A stretch of 28,834 bases of DNA, taken from positions 2,085-30,918 of the IMG/VR virus record IMGVR_UViG_3300030061_001646; one strand, 5' to 3'. The position numbers were made by a program, and so were the translations under genes. This document shows, one piece after another, positions 12,900-26,130 of the stretch (its first letter is position 1; the number at the start of each line of letters is the position of its first letter). The stretch is from a virus. The notes under the pieces were generated by a model. That model did not search any database and had not been told where the DNA came from. It saw only the letters and a list, made by a program, of their open reading frames with translations.

Positions 12900-13472
12900 A
12901 TGGCGTTATCTTTAGCATTTAAAGCAAGTTTAAATAGTACTGGTACACATATAACAATAACAGATACTACAGGCGCTTATTCAGCCACAAATACTGGAGG
13001 TTGGAACACAACTGGTGGAGATCCAAACATTGCACCAGCAGCTGTCACTGCTGTAACACTCACTATAACATATTCAGACGGAACTGTTCAAACAGCAACT
13101 CTTGATAAAACAGAAATACCTGCTTCTGTAACAGGAAACTTTTCTTATACTGCAATTAAACTAGAAGGCTATGTAGACGGTATTGCAACAGTTAATTACA
13201 AAATAACTACATCAACTACTTCATACGAAGCAGAAATAAAGCAACTATATACTTGCAATATAAGAAAATGTATTAATCAAATGTGGGTGAAAATTGCATG
13301 TGAAACTTGCAATGGTAACTGCGATTTAGTAAATTTAATAGACGATGCTAACCTTGCTGAGGGCTTATATAAAGCTTTAATTTCAGGAGCAGCTTCTTGC
13401 GACAGCGCGTGTGTTAATAAAATTTTAACTTCCTTAAACAATTTATGTTCTTGGAAGGATTGTAATTGTTAA
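12900..13472 (+). CDS. Ig-like protein with Cys-rich C-terminal domain (190 aa)
   Basis: Residues 1-115 form a Thr/Ala-rich beta domain resembling phage Ig-like or BIG modules (TAVTLTITYSDGTVQTATLD). The last ~75 residues are helical and carry ten cysteines in spaced pairs: TCNIRKC, ACETCNGNCD, SCDSACV and LCSWKDCNC at the end. I recall such Cys-rich tails from Bacteroidota phage virion proteins beside fibre genes. They could bind metal or form disulphides once released. The following gene starts with a similar Cys cluster, which suggests the two proteins meet in the virion. It is the first gene after the terminator at 12840-12880. Confidence 0.6.
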   Translation: MALSLAFKASLNSTGTHITITDTTGAYSATNTGGWNTTGGDPNIAPAAVTAVTLTITYSDGTVQTATLDKTEIPASVTGNFSYTAIKLEGYVDGIATVNYKITTSTTSYEAEIKQLYTCNIRKCINQMWVKIACETCNGNCDLVNLIDDANLAEGLYKALISGAASCDSACVNKILTSLNNLCSWKDCNC

Positions 13473-13495
13473 TAATCTTTAAAAATTAAAATATT

Positions 13496-16477
13496 ATGGG
13501 ATGCGGATGTGATTCAAGCTGTGATTGTTCACAAGTTATAACATTACCTACTGGCCAACAAGGAAACCAAGGACAACAAGGACAACAAGGTAATCCTGGT
13601 GCAGACGGTAACAGAATTTTCACTAGTACTATTGTACCACAAGATGTTGATGGTAATGATGGTGATATTCATATAAAAACTGATACAGCTGATCTGTACC
13701 AAAAAACAAGTTCAACTTGGGGAAGCCCAGTAGCTAATATTCAAGGAACTGCAGGAACTAATGGTACTAACGGTACTAATGGAGCTAATGGTACAAATGG
13801 ATCAGATGGTGCAGCAGCTACTATTACAGTAGGTACTGTAACAACTGGTGCGGCTGGTTCAAGTGCATCAATAACTAACTCAGGTACAAGTGCTGCAGCA
13901 GTATTTGATTTTACTATTCCTAAAGGAGACACAGGTTCTAGTGCTACAGCTCTTGTAGTTACTACTACTTATAGTGGTCTAACAACATTGATAACAGGAA
14001 GTAACCTTGAGCCAGGAACTTTATATAAATTCCCTTACAGTACTAAACATCTAATAGGAGGAACAAGTGCTGTTTACAATGATACAACAACAAAGCATGA
14101 CCCAGGAACAGGAGTTACTGCTGCGTTTGTTCCAGAGACAGAAAACCTTTTAGTGTTAGCAGTAACTGCTAATAAATTACACGTTCAAGCATACTCTGAA
14201 TCTCATCCTAGAGACATCATTCATTATGACCATACTTTAGATACTACTGAAGATGGATTACAAAGTAGACCAGGATTTATAACTTATAGAAAAGACCCTG
14301 ATAATGATGTATCTGCACATTTTGATTTTAGAAATGTTCTACATAGACGTTGGGATATGAACCAAGTTGTAGACAGAGATGCTCAATATGAAACAGCTTT
14401 AGGTTATGTAGCTGGTGATCCTTTAGCTAATGAACATCCTATTGCCTACGATTATGACGGGTATATTCCACCTTTTGTAAGTAATATTAATGGAGCAAAT
14501 ACTACTATAGGTATCATTACTACTCCGTACATAGGAGCTTCTAACTATAGAGATTTTAAAACTTTTGTAGGTTATGATGAGCCTCTTTGGCATGTAACTG
14601 GAGGAAGTAAAGAAAAGCCTAGATTTAAAAATGTACACATTAAAAAGTCTAGTAAAGTTGCAGCAGTTAATGGATCTTCAATAGGTACTTCTATAGAAGC
14701 AGAAGCTTCAGGGGGAGGAGGAACATTTGGTACGTTTTATCCTTCTATAGCAAACGTAGTTATGTTTTCTAGATCTTGTGAAAACATTACAGTAGGACAA
14801 AATGCTTCAGGTGTTACTATAACAGGAAGAACTAACAAGAATATAACTATTGGAAACAATAATGAAAACATAGTTATAGGAGGTTCAAAAACTGTCCCAG
14901 ACTATTCTACTGCAACAGAGCCAAAAACACTAGGATTCAATGAAAACATAGTTATTGGTAATGGTAATAGAAACATTATGATTTGTGATCATAATAGACG
15001 TATTACAATAGGAAACGCAAACCTTGGAATTCATTTTGAAAAATGGTGTACTGATTTTACTATAGGTAGTTATAATACAACAATCTATGCTAGTGAATGT
15101 TATGATGTATACATAGAAGATTGGTCTTCTGTTATAAGAATGTCTGCATCTAGTGACGTTAAAATAGAAAGTAAACAGGACACTGTTGATTTAAAAAACT
15201 GTAGACACAACGGTACTGGAGGTAAAGGTAAAACATTTCCACAAGGACATACAAGTTTATCTGCAACTGAAATTGCTGAAAGTAATATGTCTGTAGAAAT
15301 TAAATCTGGAGGTAAAGATTTGTGGATTGGTGATTCTGACGGAATTTTAATAGGTAGTGACTGTGAAGGCGTTTGGATAAAAACATCACAAAGTGTAACT
15401 GTTGATAACAGAGTCAGCAGACTTGCATTTATGTATTGTGAGTATGTATACATAAAAGACTCTGCAACTCATTTAGAATTTTCTGGCGTACAGCACGTTA
15501 ATATAGGGTGTAGTACTAGAAATACAAAGATATTTAATAGTTCTTATGTACACATTGGAGACAATGTTGTAGGCGCTTTAATAATGTATGGGTCTTTTGA
15601 TGTTAAAATAGGACACAACAGTAGTAATGTATTAATGGAATCAGCAAATCAGTGCTACACTGGAGACGCTTCCTCAATTGTAGAAATAAGAAAAGGAACA
15701 AGAATTAAAATTGGAGACCACTGTGATGGTATTTACTTAGTATATAATAATAATTGTTCAATAGGTGATGATTGTACTAATGTTACTATGAGTCCTTTAA
15801 ACGTAAAAAATGTAACTAGTAATTCTGGAGATTACAGTAATTTTAATTACAATACTATTTTAGACACTAACGGTGGAACAAGAATGAATACTCTTTCTAA
15901 TAGAACTTACGTAGGTGCAGGAAGCCCTGTAGCCCGTACTGGAGTAGCTAGTTCATTAGCAGAACTTATAAGTGAACCACAAGCTGAAAACATAGAAAAC
16001 CATGTAGGAGCAAAATGTTCAAATATTGGAATAGTTAGTAGTAAAAATAATGTAGTTGGAAACAACTGTAATGATGTTTTTATAGGATGTCCTTCAATAG
16101 CAAGTTACACTATAACTTACACTAGTGGTACAGTAGACCTTGCAGGATCTAGTCCTGCATATAACGCAACAAACATAACTGCACTAGCTACATTAGGAGG
16201 ATTAAATTGTAACTACAATACAATTGGAAACAACTGTTCTGCTATAAGATTGCAAGGAGCAACTAAAACTTACAACAATATTGGAAATAGTATATCAAAT
16301 GTTGATGCAGTTGCAGGTTTTGGATTTACAGAAGTGTCTGTGTTAGCTAGAGGAGCAGCAGTTGTTACAACAGCAGCTTACAGTAAAAAAGTATTTGATA
16401 GAACAGACGGTACTGATATTTGGGAACAAAGTATTAACTCTTCAGGAGCCGTACAAACACCTACTAAACTTCAATAA
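13496..16477 (+). CDS. Collagen-like, beta-helical tail fibre or spike (993 aa)
   Basis: Domains in order: a cysteine cluster MGCGCDSSCDCS (C3, C5, C9, C11); collagen-like Gly-X-Y repeats at 20-40 (GQQGNQGQQ...); a GDIHIKTDTADLYQK linker of the kind common between collagen blocks; a second run of GTN-type triplets at 84-104; a 'VFDFTIPKGDTG' trimerisation-type motif near 138-149; an alpha/beta region (~150-420); and a long repetitive section (~428-905) where Asn-Ile-x-Ile-Gly recurs every 9-10 residues, typical of beta-helical fibre shafts. It ends with a short capping domain. It is probably the main receptor-binding fibre or spike. The GT25 gene follows after 1 nt. Confidence 0.75.
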   Translation: MGCGCDSSCDCSQVITLPTGQQGNQGQQGQQGNPGADGNRIFTSTIVPQDVDGNDGDIHIKTDTADLYQKTSSTWGSPVANIQGTAGTNGTNGTNGANGTNGSDGAAATITVGTVTTGAAGSSASITNSGTSAAAVFDFTIPKGDTGSSATALVVTTTYSGLTTLITGSNLEPGTLYKFPYSTKHLIGGTSAVYNDTTTKHDPGTGVTAAFVPETENLLVLAVTANKLHVQAYSESHPRDIIHYDHTLDTTEDGLQSRPGFITYRKDPDNDVSAHFDFRNVLHRRWDMNQVVDRDAQYETALGYVAGDPLANEHPIAYDYDGYIPPFVSNINGANTTIGIITTPYIGASNYRDFKTFVGYDEPLWHVTGGSKEKPRFKNVHIKKSSKVAAVNGSSIGTSIEAEASGGGGTFGTFYPSIANVVMFSRSCENITVGQNASGVTITGRTNKNITIGNNNENIVIGGSKTVPDYSTATEPKTLGFNENIVIGNGNRNIMICDHNRRITIGNANLGIHFEKWCTDFTIGSYNTTIYASECYDVYIEDWSSVIRMSASSDVKIESKQDTVDLKNCRHNGTGGKGKTFPQGHTSLSATEIAESNMSVEIKSGGKDLWIGDSDGILIGSDCEGVWIKTSQSVTVDNRVSRLAFMYCEYVYIKDSATHLEFSGVQHVNIGCSTRNTKIFNSSYVHIGDNVVGALIMYGSFDVKIGHNSSNVLMESANQCYTGDASSIVEIRKGTRIKIGDHCDGIYLVYNNNCSIGDDCTNVTMSPLNVKNVTSNSGDYSNFNYNTILDTNGGTRMNTLSNRTYVGAGSPVARTGVASSLAELISEPQAENIENHVGAKCSNIGIVSSKNNVVGNNCNDVFIGCPSIASYTITYTSGTVDLAGSSPAYNATNITALATLGGLNCNYNTIGNNCSAIRLQGATKTYNNIGNSISNVDAVAGFGFTEVSVLARGAAVVTTAAYSKKVFDRTDGTDIWEQSINSSGAVQTPTKLQ
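13553..13615 (+). repeat. Collagen-like Gly-X-Y repeat block 1
   Basis: Seven in-frame Gly-X-Y triplets encoded by near-identical 9-bp units (for example GGACAACAA twice in a row). Loss or gain of a unit by slippage would change collagen length without breaking the frame. Confidence 0.7.
13745..13807 (+). repeat. Collagen-like Gly-X-Y repeat block 2 (GTN type)
   Basis: Seven triplets, mostly Gly-Thr-Asn or Gly-Ala-Asn, built on the 9-bp or 3-bp pattern GGTACTAAT/C. The run contains repeated Asn-Gly-Thr and many Thr residues, so it offers possible glycosylation positions. Confidence 0.7.
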
Positions 16478-16478
16478 T

Positions 16479-17114
16479 ATGTTTCATAAACTAGTAGATA
16501 AAGTGTATGCAATTAATCTGAAGTCTAGTGAAGACAGAAGAAACAACATTTATAGCGAATGTCATAAAATAGGTACGCACTTTAAATTAGTAGAAGCAAT
16601 AGACGGAAGAAAAGAGAACGTTCACTGGGTTAAAAATGACTGGAACAGTAAATATGATGGTTGGACACAAGGTGCAGCAGGTTTAGTACATACTACAATA
16701 GGTATTATTAAAGAAGCTAAAGCTAAAAAGTATAAATCCATAATGATTATGGAAGATGATATAGTTTTCAGACATGGTGCGTATAAAACAGCTAAAAATT
16801 TGTTTAAAACGTTGCCTAAAAACTGGGAACTTTTTCATTTAGCACATCAAAATTATAGTTCTGGCCGTCTTAATAGGGTACGTAATTTATTACAACTTAA
16901 ATCTTCCTGGTCTTGTCAGATATACATTATAAATGAAAACGTTTATGATGAATATTTAGAATGGTTAGAACTAGTTGATAGACCAATTGATAGTATTACT
17001 AGTAAAATACTGCACCCTAAAGGTAATTCATACGCTCCAATTGTAGATTTAATATCAACAATACCGAATTACTCTACTATAAGAGGCATGGAAATTAATT
17101 ATGGTATAACATAA
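16479..17114 (+). CDS. GT25-family glycosyltransferase (211 aa)
   Basis: Resembles the glycosyltransferase family 25 (LPS galactosyltransferase/collagen galactosyltransferase family), a nucleotide-sugar enzyme acting in the cytoplasm. Visible motifs, in order: VYAINLKSSEDRR (residues 9-21), EAIDGR (39-44), QGAAGLVHTTIGI (64-76), the metal-binding acidic MEDDI (91-95), DRPIDSITSKI (~157-167) and a terminal PIVDLISTIPNYSTIRG (the 'P...Q..S.I.G' site of the family). The start chosen is the ATG at 16479, 1 nt after the fibre stop. An upstream in-frame extension starting at 16362 overlaps the fibre gene and is not part of the family. Likely target: the neighbouring fibre, but host surface glycans cannot be excluded. 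Confidence 0.82.
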   Translation: MFHKLVDKVYAINLKSSEDRRNNIYSECHKIGTHFKLVEAIDGRKENVHWVKNDWNSKYDGWTQGAAGLVHTTIGIIKEAKAKKYKSIMIMEDDIVFRHGAYKTAKNLFKTLPKNWELFHLAHQNYSSGRLNRVRNLLQLKSSWSCQIYIINENVYDEYLEWLELVDRPIDSITSKILHPKGNSYAPIVDLISTIPNYSTIRGMEINYGIT

Positions 17115-17125
17115 ACTAAATTATA

Positions 17126-17746
17126 ATGAATAAAACGTGTTTAAATAATAATATTCTAAACATTCAGTATAAGCACAGTACGCTAGGAGTTACTTTAAGT
17201 GACCATTTAGAAGCAGGAACACGTAAAGTAGTATGTTTAGATAGGTATAATTTAGCTACAGGTTATATATTAGAAGTATTAAGGAAGTATAAACCTTTTG
17301 AAAGTGCCGTAACATACGCGTACAAGTTTACTTTTACTAGAACAGTTGGAGATACCACATCTGCAACAGTAACTATGCAGTTAAAAGACAACACAATAAC
17401 TCAATACACTGGAACTGGTACTGGAACTAACATTGCTGCACACTTTGAAACAGTTATAAAAGCAGGCGGGCTTACAATAGCGTATAATGTAGAAAGGGTT
17501 GATAATGTTTTATATGTTTATACTTACGATAGTGGTGCTTCTTATGCAGATGCTGCTACCACTACTTCAAGCACAACTAAAGTAACGGCAGTTTCTAAAA
17601 GTATTGAAACTGATTTAGACGAACTTCTTAATATTTGGAACAGTCTAACAGCAAAAGAACTATGTAATTTAATAAAGTTTGCTACAGCAGCATCAGGTAA
17701 AACTGCTGGTGGTAGTACAACTAATAGCAACGGATGTAATTGTTAA
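17126..17746 (+). CDS. CNC-tailed minor virion protein (206 aa)
   Basis: The N-terminus (LNIQYKHSTLGVTLSDHLEAGTRK) is followed by a beta domain (TYAYKFTFTRTVGDTTSATVTMQLKD is its core, residues ~60-125) that resembles phage virion beta domains with repeated Thr-rich strands. A helical segment (DLDELLNIWNSLTAKELCNL) precedes a Gly/Thr/Ser-rich linker and a terminal NGCNC. The CNC end repeats that of the Ig-like protein at 12900-13472. I recognise no function, but the position between the glycosyltransferase and the next fibre suggests an adhesin or fibre adaptor. The start lies 11 nt after the GT25 stop. Confidence 0.55.
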   Translation: MNKTCLNNNILNIQYKHSTLGVTLSDHLEAGTRKVVCLDRYNLATGYILEVLRKYKPFESAVTYAYKFTFTRTVGDTTSATVTMQLKDNTITQYTGTGTGTNIAAHFETVIKAGGLTIAYNVERVDNVLYVYTYDSGASYADAATTTSSTTKVTAVSKSIETDLDELLNIWNSLTAKELCNLIKFATAASGKTAGGSTTNSNGCNC

Positions 17747-19427: not shown

Positions 19428-21137
19428 ATGTCAATAATTATAAGTAAAACTAGAATAATAGGAACTACTCCTGTACCTGTTCAAACTTGGGAAAGGCCAG
19501 GTGATTGGTTAGATATGCCTGCATTATCTCAAGGAGATGAAAAAATATATTATCTTGTTAAAGTATTTGAAGACGGAGAGAATTTTCTTAGGTTTAGAAT
19601 AACTGGCGATTACACAGTAGATTGGGGAGATGGTACAGCAAATACAAATCATTCTTCGCTTACAAATGCAGAGCATGAATTTGCTTGGGGTGACGCTTCC
19701 CCAAGTTCATTAACAAGTCATGGTTTTAGACAAGTAATTGTTACAGTTACTCCACAATCAGGTTCAACATTAACAGGAATTAACAGACAAAGTTCTCCAT
19801 ATCACGCAACGGGAGATACTGCAAGAGGTGGAAGTAACAGCGTTATAAGTGTTAAAATGGCGGGTACTGGATTTACTACTCTACATCAAGCCTTTTATAA
19901 TTATACTGCTTTAGAAGAATTTGAATATGTTGGAACTACACCTAATTTAGTTACTGCCAGTCAAGTTTTTTCACAATGTACTCACCTTAAAAAAGTAATT
20001 CAATGGAATACAGCAAATGTTACAACTTTATCCAGTTGTTTTAATTCTTGCTACCAATTACTCACTCTTCCTCAATTAGACACAAGTAGTTGTACTAATT
20101 TTGCTAGTATGTTTCTAAATTGTTTTATTATAGATTATATTCCTCCAATAGTTGTAACTGCAGCTACGTCATTAAGTAATACTTTTAATGGTTGTAATAA
20201 TTTAAAAAGCAATCCAATTTCAGATTATACGGGAATAACCAATTTTACTGCTGCTTTTAAAAGTACGGGTATTAAAGTATTTGAAGCAACGTTACCTAAC
20301 GCAACAAATCTTTATACTATGTTTCAGAATTGTGCAAATTTAGAAGTTGCAAGCTTAACTATACCTAATGGGCAATTAACCAGCATAGGTTATTTATTTT
20401 CTGGTTGTAATCAAATTAAAGAAATTAAACCATTTGATACTTCTGCTGTTACTGAATTTAGATATGCTTTTGGAACAAATAGATATATTAGAGATTATGG
20501 TTGGTTAGATACCAGTTCAGGTCAAAACCTTACAGGAATGTTTTCTGGTAACTATTTAACAGACGCAAGTTTTATAGATATTAGTTCAGCAACAAGTGTA
20601 AGTAGTTTGTTTGCTGATTGTGTTAAGTTAAGAAAACTACCAGCTTCTTTTGATTGTACTAACTTAACATCAATAGCAGGAATGTTTAAAGGTTGTGGTA
20701 TGTTAGAAATAACTCCTAATTTAATCAACACAGGAAACATTACAAATACTACAACTGCTTTTTATTATTGCAGAACCCTTAAACAAGCTCCACCAATAAG
20801 TGGAACTATTTCTAATGCTCAACAAATGTTTCAAAATTGTAGGAACTTAGAGAAAATACCTGCTTATGATTTAAGTGGTTGCAACTCTGGAAATGAAACT
20901 TATTTATTTGCTTCAGCTTGTTTTAATTTAAGAGAGTCTTTAGTAACTGGTAACACTTCTAAAATTAATTACAGTAGTTGTGCTTTAAGTGAATCTAAAA
21001 TAGAAGAAATATTTACTAATTTAGGAACAGTATCAAGTGCAACAGTAATTAATGTTTCTAATTGTCCAGGTTCAGCAGGATTAACAACAGCACAAGAAGA
21101 TATAGCTATTATTAAAGGTTGGACAGTAACAAATTAA
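19428..21137 (+). CDS. PKD-like plus BspA-type leucine-rich-repeat protein (569 aa)
   Basis: The N-terminal domain (residues ~20-110) has a PKD-like strand and loop with DWGDGT at 65-70. From about residue 140 to 545 there are roughly ten repeats of the BspA/DUF285 type: an F-x-x-C-x-x-L core (FSQCTHL, FNSCYQL, FNGCNNL, FQNCANL, FSGCNQI, FADCVKL, FKGCGML, FYYCRTL, FQNCRNL) plus short helices and strands, with a Leu/Ile/Pro pattern and buried cysteines. BspA-like repeats are known in bacterial surface adhesins. A phage copy next to fibre genes is probably a receptor-binding or accessory adhesin. The ATG follows the fibre stop by 4 nt. Confidence 0.78.
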   Translation: MSIIISKTRIIGTTPVPVQTWERPGDWLDMPALSQGDEKIYYLVKVFEDGENFLRFRITGDYTVDWGDGTANTNHSSLTNAEHEFAWGDASPSSLTSHGFRQVIVTVTPQSGSTLTGINRQSSPYHATGDTARGGSNSVISVKMAGTGFTTLHQAFYNYTALEEFEYVGTTPNLVTASQVFSQCTHLKKVIQWNTANVTTLSSCFNSCYQLLTLPQLDTSSCTNFASMFLNCFIIDYIPPIVVTAATSLSNTFNGCNNLKSNPISDYTGITNFTAAFKSTGIKVFEATLPNATNLYTMFQNCANLEVASLTIPNGQLTSIGYLFSGCNQIKEIKPFDTSAVTEFRYAFGTNRYIRDYGWLDTSSGQNLTGMFSGNYLTDASFIDISSATSVSSLFADCVKLRKLPASFDCTNLTSIAGMFKGCGMLEITPNLINTGNITNTTTAFYYCRTLKQAPPISGTISNAQQMFQNCRNLEKIPAYDLSGCNSGNETYLFASACFNLRESLVTGNTSKINYSSCALSESKIEEIFTNLGTVSSATVINVSNCPGSAGLTTAQEDIAIIKGWTVTN

Positions 21138-25233: not shown

Positions 25234-26130
25234 ATGCCCAACGAAATAGAGAAATTTTTAAGAATAAATACAGGATATCTTAAATGGGGCAAACAGAAAC
25301 TTGCTAATAAGCTTGGAGTATCTGTAAATGAAGTAGCAAATGCAAAGAAAGCCATTGCTTTAGAAAACTCTAAAATAATTAGTGATAAAGAATGGGAAGA
25401 GTTTAAAAAGTTTAAAGAGAATAAGTTTAAACCTCCTAAAAAGCTAAAGAAAAAGTTGCCTAAACCTTATTTAAAAGGTAACTTAAAAAACGTTCTTATT
25501 ATTGGCGACATACATGAGCCTTTTTCATTACCTGGTTATCTACAGTTTGTAAGGAAAATACAAGAAAGATATGATTGCGGGACTGTTGTTTTTATTGGAG
25601 ATGTAATTGATAACCATTACGCTAGTTACCATGAAACAGAAACAACTGCTTTAGGTTCTGATAATGAATTATTGTGGGCAATAGATAAAATACAAGAATG
25701 GTATAGCGTGTTTCCAAAAGCATATGTTACTATTGGAAACCATGATAGAATGGCTTTTAGAAAAGCTAAAACTTCTGGAGTATCATCCAAATGGGTTAGG
25801 GACTATGATGAGGTTCTTGGAACACCAGGATGGAACTTTGTAGAAGAAATTGAAATAGACAACGTTAATTATAATCACGGTGAAGGCGGTACAGCTAAAA
25901 CTAAGATGAAGAATGAACTACAGTCACAAGTGCAAGGGCACTTGCATGCACAAGCATACATTGAGTTTTCCACTGGTAAACATAATGTAGTGTTTGGTAT
26001 GCAAGTAGGTTGTGGTGTAGATGATACTGCTTACGCTATGGCGTATGGTAAAAATTTTAAAAAGAGTACAATATCTTGCGGAGTAGTTAAAAACGGTAAA
26101 CAGCCAATATTAATATCAATGAACTTATAA
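25234..26130 (+). CDS. HTH-metallophosphoesterase fusion (298 aa)
   Basis: The C-terminal ~210 residues are a calcineurin-like metallophosphoesterase with every metal-binding motif: GDIHEP (91-96), GDVIDNH (122-128), GNHDR (168-172), a NHGEGG block (214-219) and GHLHA (235-239). The enzyme cleaves phosphate esters, with substrate unknown. The N-terminal ~45 residues (GKQKLANKLGVSVNEVANAKKAI) look like a helix-turn-helix, which would let it act on or near DNA. A Lys/Pro-rich linker (55-80) joins the domains. It sits between lysis and neck genes. It could process packaged DNA, nucleic acid ends or host RNA. The start is ATG 25234, 12 nt after the preceding stop. Confidence 0.82.
   Translation: MPNEIEKFLRINTGYLKWGKQKLANKLGVSVNEVANAKKAIALENSKIISDKEWEEFKKFKENKFKPPKKLKKKLPKPYLKGNLKNVLIIGDIHEPFSLPGYLQFVRKIQERYDCGTVVFIGDVIDNHYASYHETETTALGSDNELLWAIDKIQEWYSVFPKAYVTIGNHDRMAFRKAKTSGVSSKWVRDYDEVLGTPGWNFVEEIEIDNVNYNHGEGGTAKTKMKNELQSQVQGHLHAQAYIEFSTGKHNVVFGMQVGCGVDDTAYAMAYGKNFKKSTISCGVVKNGKQPILISMNL

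What the first reader, a model, noticed from the sequence alone, without database searches (positions are those of the whole stretch)
13496..17114. GT25 glycosyltransferase directly behind a collagen-like fibre gene: candidate virion-glycosylation pair
Sequence shows a fibre with two Gly-X-Y blocks and, 1 nt after its stop, a GT25-type enzyme with EDD and the other family motifs. GT25 is the CAZy family that also contains the collagen galactosyltransferases of animals. Adjacency and coupled translation suggest the enzyme acts on the fibre, possibly on the Thr/Asn-rich GTN block, which contains Asn-Gly-Thr sites. Fibre glycosylation in a crAss-like phage could mask the virion or mimic host glycans. 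The collagen blocks lack lysine, so a hydroxylysine route as in animals is not expected; the acceptor would be different.
Basis: partly seen in the sequence, partly recalled or inferred. Interest (0 to 1): 0.76.

Follow-up and report, generated by a model that had tools for sequence, protein, structure and literature searches.

The report
Mobile phage fibre–glycosyltransferase gene pair
A phage gene for a spike-like surface protein is followed at once by a sugar-attaching enzyme, and the same two genes travel together between otherwise unrelated phages, which suggests that the enzyme decorates the spike with sugar.

Summary
In detail: a 993-aa collagen-bearing fibre-like gene (13496-16477) is followed after 1 nt by a real GT25 enzyme (16479-17114; Pfam 9.5e-14, confident GT25 fold, EDD intact). 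The closest GT25 relatives, found by enzyme sequence, lie directly behind a homologue of the same fibre in 10 of 10 contigs, with crAss-type, T4-type and megaphage members. In 15 of 15 crAss-type/T4-type pairs compared, no other gene nearby is shared, and both gene trees reject one crAss-type clade: the pair moves as a cassette. But only 2 of 9 complete partner fibres carry Gly-X-Y; what is shared is the fibre body. The collagen/GTN block is therefore an unlikely acceptor. The closest solved structure is the GT25 domain of human collagen galactosyltransferase, but three features essential to that enzyme are missing. Best explanation: a dedicated protein glycosyltransferase that modifies its partner fibre body, working like TibC on TibA (confidence 0.6). 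Rivals: modification of the host receptor, or a fibre chaperone. Sugar transfer and acceptor site are not shown. My paper searches (open-licence PMC) found no such pair.

The parts
13496..16477 (+). fibre-like protein, 993 aa: phage-specific collagen-bearing N-terminus plus conserved body
13553..13615 (+). Gly-X-Y block 1 (residues 20-40, 7 triplets, no Lys); Gly-X-Y occurs in 2 of 9 complete partner fibres
   Evidence: Pfam PF01391
13745..13816 (+). Gly-X-Y block 2, the GTN block (residues 84-107, 8 triplets); not found in the other 8 complete partner fibres
13955..14371 (+). head domain of the fibre body (about residues 154-292), found in all 9 complete partner fibres and in many phage fibres without GT25
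14756..15790 (+). predicted beta-helix (about residues 421-765, most of the confident part of a model that is poor elsewhere)
16479..17114 (+). GT25-family glycosyltransferase, 211 aa, single GT-A-like domain, starts 1 nt after the fibre stop
16752..16760 (+). EDD motif (residues 92-94), invariant in the 10 aligned GT25s of A3

Best explanation
The two genes form a mobile cassette: a tail/surface fibre whose body is inherited together with its own glycosyltransferase, while the N-terminal part differs between phages. Late in infection, in the cytoplasm, the GT25 enzyme takes a sugar from a host nucleotide-sugar pool (probably UDP-hexose) and attaches it to residues on the fibre body (head domain or beta-helix rungs) while the fibre is made. 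The mature virion then carries a sugar-decorated fibre. Shown: family and predicted fold of the enzyme, intact EDD, adjacency in 10 of 10 contigs, presence of the pair in crAss-type and T4-type phages that share nothing else nearby, and absence of collagen from most partners. Inferred: that catalysis occurs, that the fibre is the acceptor, the timing, the donor, the site and the benefit.
For: Close relatives of the enzyme were fetched by enzyme sequence. In 10 of 10 such contigs a homologue of the fibre lies directly upstream on the same strand: gaps of 1-30 nt in the nine with a complete fibre, and a fibre C-terminus 2 nt upstream where the tenth contig (L011) begins. Outside this set 1 of 17 judged GT25 rows had it (L059). 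Chance of the adjacency averages 0.09 per locus; the product over nine loci, 2e-10, overstates the case because the pairs share ancestry. Of 36 pairs of neighbourhoods of about 20 kb, 30 share no further gene; the 6 that do lie within one capsid/tail type. In 15 of 15 crAss-type/T4-type pairs nothing else is shared, the fibre being matched by BLAST in 14 (L018-L019 is the miss). Types: crAss capsid in 4 of 11 records, gp23 in another 4, crAss ring proteins in L079. One clade of the five crAss-type members is rejected for the enzyme (AU p 3e-57) and for the fibre body (p 0.005). Enzyme and head-domain distances correlate (Mantel r 0.86, p 0.0002, n 9; r 0.70, p 0.005, n 7 without the closest kin). 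EDD is kept in all 11 close enzymes. Fold: COLGALT1 Z 21.5 over 205 residues, mimivirus R655 Z 17.3, bacterial beta-1,4-galactosyltransferase Z about 16. 5 of 9 records have no PF00535 match, and in the other 4 none lies within 8 kb of the enzyme. A divergent GT25 overlapping a head-type fibre by 14 nt (L059) may be a second, independent pairing.
Against: No glycan, acceptor residue or activity was observed. No head-domain residue marks the partnered fibres clearly: T215 is in 8 of 9 partnered versus 8 of 29 others, a weak lead. The head domain mostly occurs without GT25: 28 of 38 distinct heads. Similarity to the rest of the body is strong in 5 of the 9 (the five that trained the profile), weak in L018 and L079, and not detected in L016 (as L007) and L019, so no well-conserved acceptor region beyond the head is common to all. 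GT25 enzymes of bacteria usually act on surface glycans (family knowledge), more distant phage GT25s do sit beside other glycosyltransferases, and co-transfer would also fit a fibre paired with an enzyme that alters its receptor.
Confidence: 0.6

Rival explanations
1. Receptor-modification pair: the enzyme adds a sugar to a host surface glycan (LPS/LOS) that the partner fibre recognises, preventing superinfection or loss of progeny on debris; fibre and enzyme travel together because their specificities match.
For: Pfam names the family after LPS biosynthesis, and the third-best solved group is a bacterial beta-1,4-galactosyltransferase. More distant phage GT25s (L021, L023, L029, L031) and a bacterial one (L082) have other glycosyltransferases beside them: 7 of 10 scanned neighbours are over a GT family's cut-off. 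Co-transfer with the fibre is equally expected. L013 and L015, and with one or two matches L016 and L019, encode GT2-type enzymes elsewhere.
Against: In this clade the enzyme stands directly behind the fibre gene, with no PF00535 match within 8 kb in any of nine records (other GT families were not searched). Its place in a structural region implies late expression, when exclusion is of little use (inference). The pair occurs in crAss-type, T4-type and mega-phages, which are unlikely to share one host glycan (inference).
Confidence: 0.2
2. Fibre-assembly factor or virion component: a GT25 fold used as a chaperone or cap for its fibre, in the slot behind the fibre gene where T4 gp38 and Mu Tfa are encoded; catalysis is secondary.
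For: Fibre chaperones of about 20-22 kDa are encoded directly downstream of fibre genes in T4, Mu and Alteromonas phage V22 (PMC7289586, passages). The enzyme's size (211 aa) and position fit. In L013/L015 it carries a 175-aa C-terminal extension for which I found no family, as if tied to something else.
Against: The EDD and other motif residues are kept in enzymes 29-72% identical to the window's, which a mere chaperone need not keep. The fold match to active enzymes runs over nearly the whole chain.
Confidence: 0.12
3. One reading: the enzyme glycosylates the collagen-like stem, possibly Asn-Gly-Thr in the GTN block.
For: Collagen galactosyltransferase is the closest solved relative; the window fibre has two Gly-X-Y blocks.
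Against: 7 of 9 complete partner fibres have no Gly-X-Y run of four triplets or more. The GTN block is not in the crAss-like relative L012. Collagen-like genes without a GT25 behind them occur in L003, L053 and L059. Three features essential to collagen galactosyltransferase activity are missing.
Confidence: 0.05

Closest known systems
TibA/TibC and AIDA-I/AAH: autotransporter adhesins with dedicated heptosyltransferases (PMC4358343, abstract start and passages seen)
   Same: A dedicated enzyme for a beta-helix adhesin; glycosylated TibA is among the beta-helix structures that match the fibre model (4q1q, Z 14.8, rmsd 5.1, 258 aligned)
   Different: TibC is a heptosyltransferase acting on serines of a bacterial autotransporter; here it is a GT25 enzyme with a phage fibre. 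A beta-helix match is a shared shape; tailspikes, epimerases and lyases match as well. That tibC and tibA are neighbours is recalled, not seen in a call
Procollagen galactosyltransferase 1 (COLGALT1/GLT25D1)
   Same: GT25 domain fold over nearly the whole chain (Z 21.5, 205 aligned, rmsd 2.5), EDD motif
   Different: Two GT domains with an essential first DXD, an essential second DXD and RMQV (PMC3244457, passages seen) that the phage enzyme lacks; most partner fibres have no collagen
Mimivirus R655 (with R699, L230): giant-virus enzymes proposed or shown to modify collagen (PMC9546862, passages seen)
   Same: Virus-encoded GT25-type enzyme in a virus with collagen-like proteins; R655 is the next-closest structure (Z 17.3)
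   Different: Eukaryotic virus; R655's activity was not tested in the passages I saw; no fixed fibre-enzyme cassette described there
Virion glycosylation in mycobacteriophages (Che8, Corndog, Myrna)
   Same: Phage-encoded glycosyltransferases modify the phage's own virion proteins (PMC12363180 and PMC12619734, passages seen; Freeman et al. 2023 seen only as a citation)
   Different: Capsid and tail-tube proteins; no fibre co-transfer in the passages seen
Tail-fibre chaperones (T4 gp38, Mu Tfa, V22 gp27)
   Same: Small gene directly behind the fibre gene (PMC7289586, passages seen)
   Different: No glycosyltransferase homology is known to me for these; not tested here

Membership tests
GT25 (Pfam PF01755) | Sequence match above the curated cut-off | tested here: met
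   52.2 bits against a cut-off of 24; NCBIfam gives no hit at E 0.01
GT25 (Pfam PF01755) | GT-A-like GT25 fold with EDD motif | tested here: met
   AF2 pLDDT 87.3; the best solved matches (ranks 1-18, 1-10) are COLGALT1, R655 and bacterial GT25 enzymes; EDD at 92-94 invariant in A3
GT25 (Pfam PF01755) | Transfers a sugar from a nucleotide donor | not testable with these tools
   needs enzyme assay
Collagen galactosyltransferase (COLGALT1/2) | EDD motif of the GT25 domain | tested here: met
   aligned
Collagen galactosyltransferase (COLGALT1/2) | N-terminal GT domain with essential first DXD (166-168) | tested here: not met
   211-aa protein aligned to COLGALT1 335-574 only; essentiality from PMC3244457 passages
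Collagen galactosyltransferase (COLGALT1/2) | Essential second DXD (461-463) | tested here: not met
   the aligned stretch reads N-W-E in the window; some relatives come nearer (D-W-E, D-W-D)
Collagen galactosyltransferase (COLGALT1/2) | RMQV motif after the second DXD | tested here: not met
   absent from the aligned stretch of the profile and from the window enzyme
Phage tail fibre/spike (partner protein) | Match to a known tail-fibre family | tested here: inconclusive
   window: tail PHROGs match residues 14-151 only; six relatives match no PHROG; four scanned relatives have no Pfam match over a cut-off; no solved structure by sequence
Phage tail fibre/spike (partner protein) | Beta-helix body as in tailspikes | tested here: inconclusive
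   model poor overall (pLDDT 49.5) but residues about 421-765 mostly well predicted; matches beta-helix proteins including phi29 gp12 and several tailspikes, Z about 14-16
Dedicated adhesin glycosyltransferase pair (TibC/TibA type) | Conserved genetic linkage of enzyme and adhesin-like partner | tested here: met
   10 of 10 contigs
Dedicated adhesin glycosyltransferase pair (TibC/TibA type) | Enzyme belongs to the heptosyltransferase family of TibC | tested here: not met
   it is GT25
Dedicated adhesin glycosyltransferase pair (TibC/TibA type) | Partner is glycosylated by the enzyme | not testable with these tools
   needs mass spectrometry

The most novel reading that the evidence does not exclude
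A horizontally mobile self-glycosylating fibre cassette: a fibre-body family without a match in the curated libraries searched carries its own collagen-galactosyltransferase-like GT25 enzyme and crosses between crAss-type phages, T4-type phages and megaphages, giving virions sugar-coated receptor-binding fibres. The pairing may have arisen twice (main clade and L059).
Probability: 0.45. Interest if true: 0.82.

Novelty: new variant of a known kind. Interest (0 to 1): 0.64.

Why it matters
Virion protein glycosylation by phage enzymes is documented, in the passages I saw, on capsids and tail tubes of mycobacteriophages. A fibre that travels with its own glycosyltransferase between unrelated phage groups would mean that sugar decoration can be part of a receptor-binding module, would bear on predicting phage-host pairs from sequence, and would give a compact two-gene system for testing what sugars on phage fibres do. 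It would also add a phage, protein-acceptor branch to the family that includes animal collagen galactosyltransferases.

Tried and rejected
Collagen as the shared partner: rejected on 7 of 9 fibres without Gly-X-Y. Bacterial origin: the genome-contig scan gave 3 loci that encode a relative, of 68 pattern matches (23-31% identity), none with a match to the fibre profile; it used two patterns and is not exhaustive. A head-domain residue marking partnered fibres: none clear, T215 weak. One clade of partnered heads: the free tree needs 3 changes; one clade of nine is not rejected (AU p 0.59) and not shown. The head and rest-of-body profiles were trained on partnered fibres, so their higher scores for these are biased and not used as evidence; the rest-of-body profile also touches one unpartnered fibre (L061, 18 bits). 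The 175-aa extension of the L013/L015 enzyme: no PHROG, no tblastn hit in phages, no match among fetched ORFs but itself; my impression of a fibre-tip motif came from no call. Many further fold matches are GT-A or beta-helix folds in general and say nothing of function. AU tests that did not reject: window+L012 for the enzyme (p 0.38), window+L012+L014 for the fibre (p 0.19). My first grouping left L079 out of the crAss type; one search showed ring proteins 1 and 2 there (ring 3/4 and capsid profiles did not ring), and repeats the tests with five. All groups were named after a first tree had been seen, and long branches are present, so the p values are guides. Paper searches that listed no fibre-GT25 pair: (open-licence PMC, 2-20 papers listed each), so this is no proof that it is not in print. 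Burkholderia phage AP3 (H3, H4, 25% identity) was listed and not fetched. Rows dropped or merged: L006 (same virus, short) from the trees; six contig-start GT25 rows not judged for upstream gene (two of them L011's); L033 left out of that tree because its match is under 100 residues (its upstream gene is not a head-type fibre); L016, L017 and LR756504 counted once, as were window, L001 and L010, and other loci that repeat a contig.
Full report
What is there. The window is part of a 33,995-base virus record (window = 2085-30918) and carries a crAss-like structural region: crAss major capsid protein 9.2e-136, ring proteins 1, 2 and 3/4, auxiliary capsid, portal and terminase. The fibre ORF is 13496-16477 and the enzyme 16479-17114, one base apart. 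The first-stage coordinates are right. Pfam calls the enzyme Glyco_transf_25 (9.5e-14); the collagen match of the fibre is marginal (27.3 bits, cut-off 27.2). Two Gly-X-Y runs of 7 and 8 triplets are present without lysine; 2 of 5000 shuffles reached a run of seven.

The enzyme. An AF2 model from ten related sequences has pLDDT 87.3. In PDB the best matches are the GT25 domain of human COLGALT1 (Foldseek 1.5e-14; Z 21.5, rmsd 2.5, 205 aligned), mimivirus R655 (Z 17.3) and bacterial beta-1,4-galactosyltransferases (Z 15-16). Profile search by sequence gives the same order: COLGALT1 8e-12, R655 3e-6, bacterial GT25 8e-4. E92, D93 and D94 are invariant in the alignment. By the mutagenesis in PMC3244457 (passages) collagen galactosyltransferase needs a first DXD in another domain and a second DXD, and its discussion calls RMQV essential; the phage protein lacks these in the alignment. 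So it is a GT25 enzyme related to, but not a member of, the collagen galactosyltransferases.

Relatives and linkage. Searching with the enzyme gave close relatives in IMG/VR and in the 636-kb record LR756504 (one search added no new contig). I count ten contigs: window/L010, L011, L012, L013, L014, L015, L016 (with L017 and LR756504), L018, L019, L079. The border of this set is mine: where printed, its enzymes match profile A3 at 1e-80 or better, but A3 was built from nine of the ten after I had seen their neighbours; with the narrower profile A1 the same contigs (L079 not yet fetched) rank first, down to L019 (2e-40), and the next, L020 (2e-34), has no such fibre. Nine have a complete gene upstream, and in nine of nine it is a homologue of the window fibre, 1, 4, 2, 3, 2, 15, 30, 17 and 1 nt away for window, L012, L013, L014, L015, L016, L018, L019 and L079. 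L011 begins 205 bases before its enzyme, and those bases encode a 66-residue stretch plainly like the end of L013's fibre, 2 nt before the enzyme. In the tree of 32 GT25 rows, 26 could be judged: of the 9 close rows 9 had the fibre upstream, of the other 17 one did (L059). Eight of the nine lie in one clade (98/95); L019 falls just outside it, near a Dehalococcoidia sequence. Seven of ten scanned neighbours of distant GT25s (L021, L023, L029, L031, bacterial L082) are themselves glycosyltransferases.

A cassette that moves. Neighbourhoods of about 20 kb of nine contigs were compared all against all (L011 not included). Of 36 pairs, 30 share no further gene; six do: L010-L012 (6 genes), L013-L015 (13), L014-L018 (4), L010-L018 (2), L012-L079 and L018-L079 (one weak match each). 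Types: crAss capsid in L010, L012, L014 and L018; T4-type gp23 in L011, L013, L015 and L019; neither found in L016, L079 and L059, which may be fragments. L079 has crAss ring proteins 1 and 2 over their cut-offs, not ring 3/4, so I group it as crAss-type. All six gene-sharing pairs are then within one type, and 15 of 15 crAss-type/T4-type pairs share nothing but the enzyme and, in 14 of 15 by BLAST, the fibre; the fifteenth, L018-L019, has a fibre in both by profile. In the enzyme tree the window's nearest row is L011's first enzyme (72% identity), from a T4-type contig, ahead of the crAss-like L012 (64%). One clade of the five crAss-type members is rejected for the enzyme (AU p 3e-57) and the fibre body (p 0.005); a T4-type clade is rejected for the fibre (p 0.006) and the enzyme (p 3e-5). 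Smaller groups give weaker results: window+L012+L014 p 0.02 for the enzyme, 0.19 for the fibre; window+L012 p 0.38 for the enzyme. L018 and L079 pair up in the fibre tree (100/100); in the enzyme trees they share a starred clade with L011's second enzyme. Distances of enzyme and head domain correlate (r 0.86, p 0.0002, nine contigs; r 0.70, p 0.005, seven). Long branches, few contigs and groups named after a first tree limit these tests.

What the partner is. Only window and L012 fibres have Gly-X-Y (2 of 9). The N-terminal parts differ between phages while the body from about residue 154 is shared. The head domain (154-292) occurs in all nine and in many fibres without GT25: 28 of 38 distinct heads. 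The rest of the body is strongly alike in window, L012, L013, L014 and L015 (the five that trained the profile), weakly in L018 and L079, and not detected in L007 (as L016) and L019. The fibre model is poor overall (49.5) but residues about 421-765 are mostly predicted well as a beta-helix, with matches to epimerases, phi29 gp12, tailspikes and glycosylated TibA. The libraries searched hold no family for the window's body, nor, over a cut-off, for the relatives scanned (a sub-threshold CBM_5_12 match in L016). So 'fibre' remains an inference from position, collagen stem and predicted shape.

Mechanism. Linkage through transfer between phage types, the conserved catalytic motif, and the lack of PF00535 glycosyltransferases in 5 of 9 records and within 8 kb of the enzyme in the other 4 point to an enzyme serving the fibre. 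I think it most likely that it glycosylates the body during synthesis, as TibC does to TibA (PMC4358343, passages). A receptor-modifying role is the main rival; a chaperone role in the slot where T4, Mu and V22 encode theirs (PMC7289586, passages) is another. The collagen/GTN acceptor idea is unlikely. Donor, site and benefit are unknown; T215 of the head is a weak lead. L059, with a divergent GT25 overlapping a head-type fibre by 14 nt, may be a second origin of the pairing; its branch is long and its place unsure.

Literature. Eight searches bearing on a phage fibre/GT25 or virion-glycosylation pair listed none that describes it, in an open-licence library and judged from titles and abstract starts. 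Virion glycosylation by phage enzymes is known. I therefore rate it a new variant of a known kind.

Noticed in passing
window 19428-21137: 569-aa protein with DUF285 repeats (PF03382, 2.9e-30) in the crAss-like structural region, matching PHROGs of unknown function; a possible second surface protein.
   Followed up: no
L011 206-838 and 840-1457: Two GT25 genes in tandem behind the fibre end in a T4-type contig, from two different subclades of the fibre-linked enzymes.
   Followed up: partly
L013/L015 10001-11161: The GT25 enzyme carries a 175-aa C-terminal extension for which no relatives were found.
   Followed up: partly
L059 2927-12876: Four head-type fibre genes in one stretch, two with long Gly-Ser/Thr-rich collagen-like repeats; only one is followed by a GT25. 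A second GT25 match in the same record holds an in-frame TAG.
   Followed up: partly
window 13440-13535 and 17720-17746; L003 3139-5130: Cys-rich ends (MGCGCDSSCDC, CNC, NGCNC) recur at the fibre N-terminus and at the C-termini of neighbouring window genes, and the three collagen-like genes of L003 have similar Cys-rich N-termini.
   Followed up: no
window 25234-26130: Calcineurin-like metallophosphoesterase gene directly before the ring protein 2 gene.
   Followed up: no
L016 8282-9985: The megaphage partner fibre has a sub-threshold match to a carbohydrate-binding module (PF02839, 21.9 bits, cut-off 26.2).
   Followed up: no
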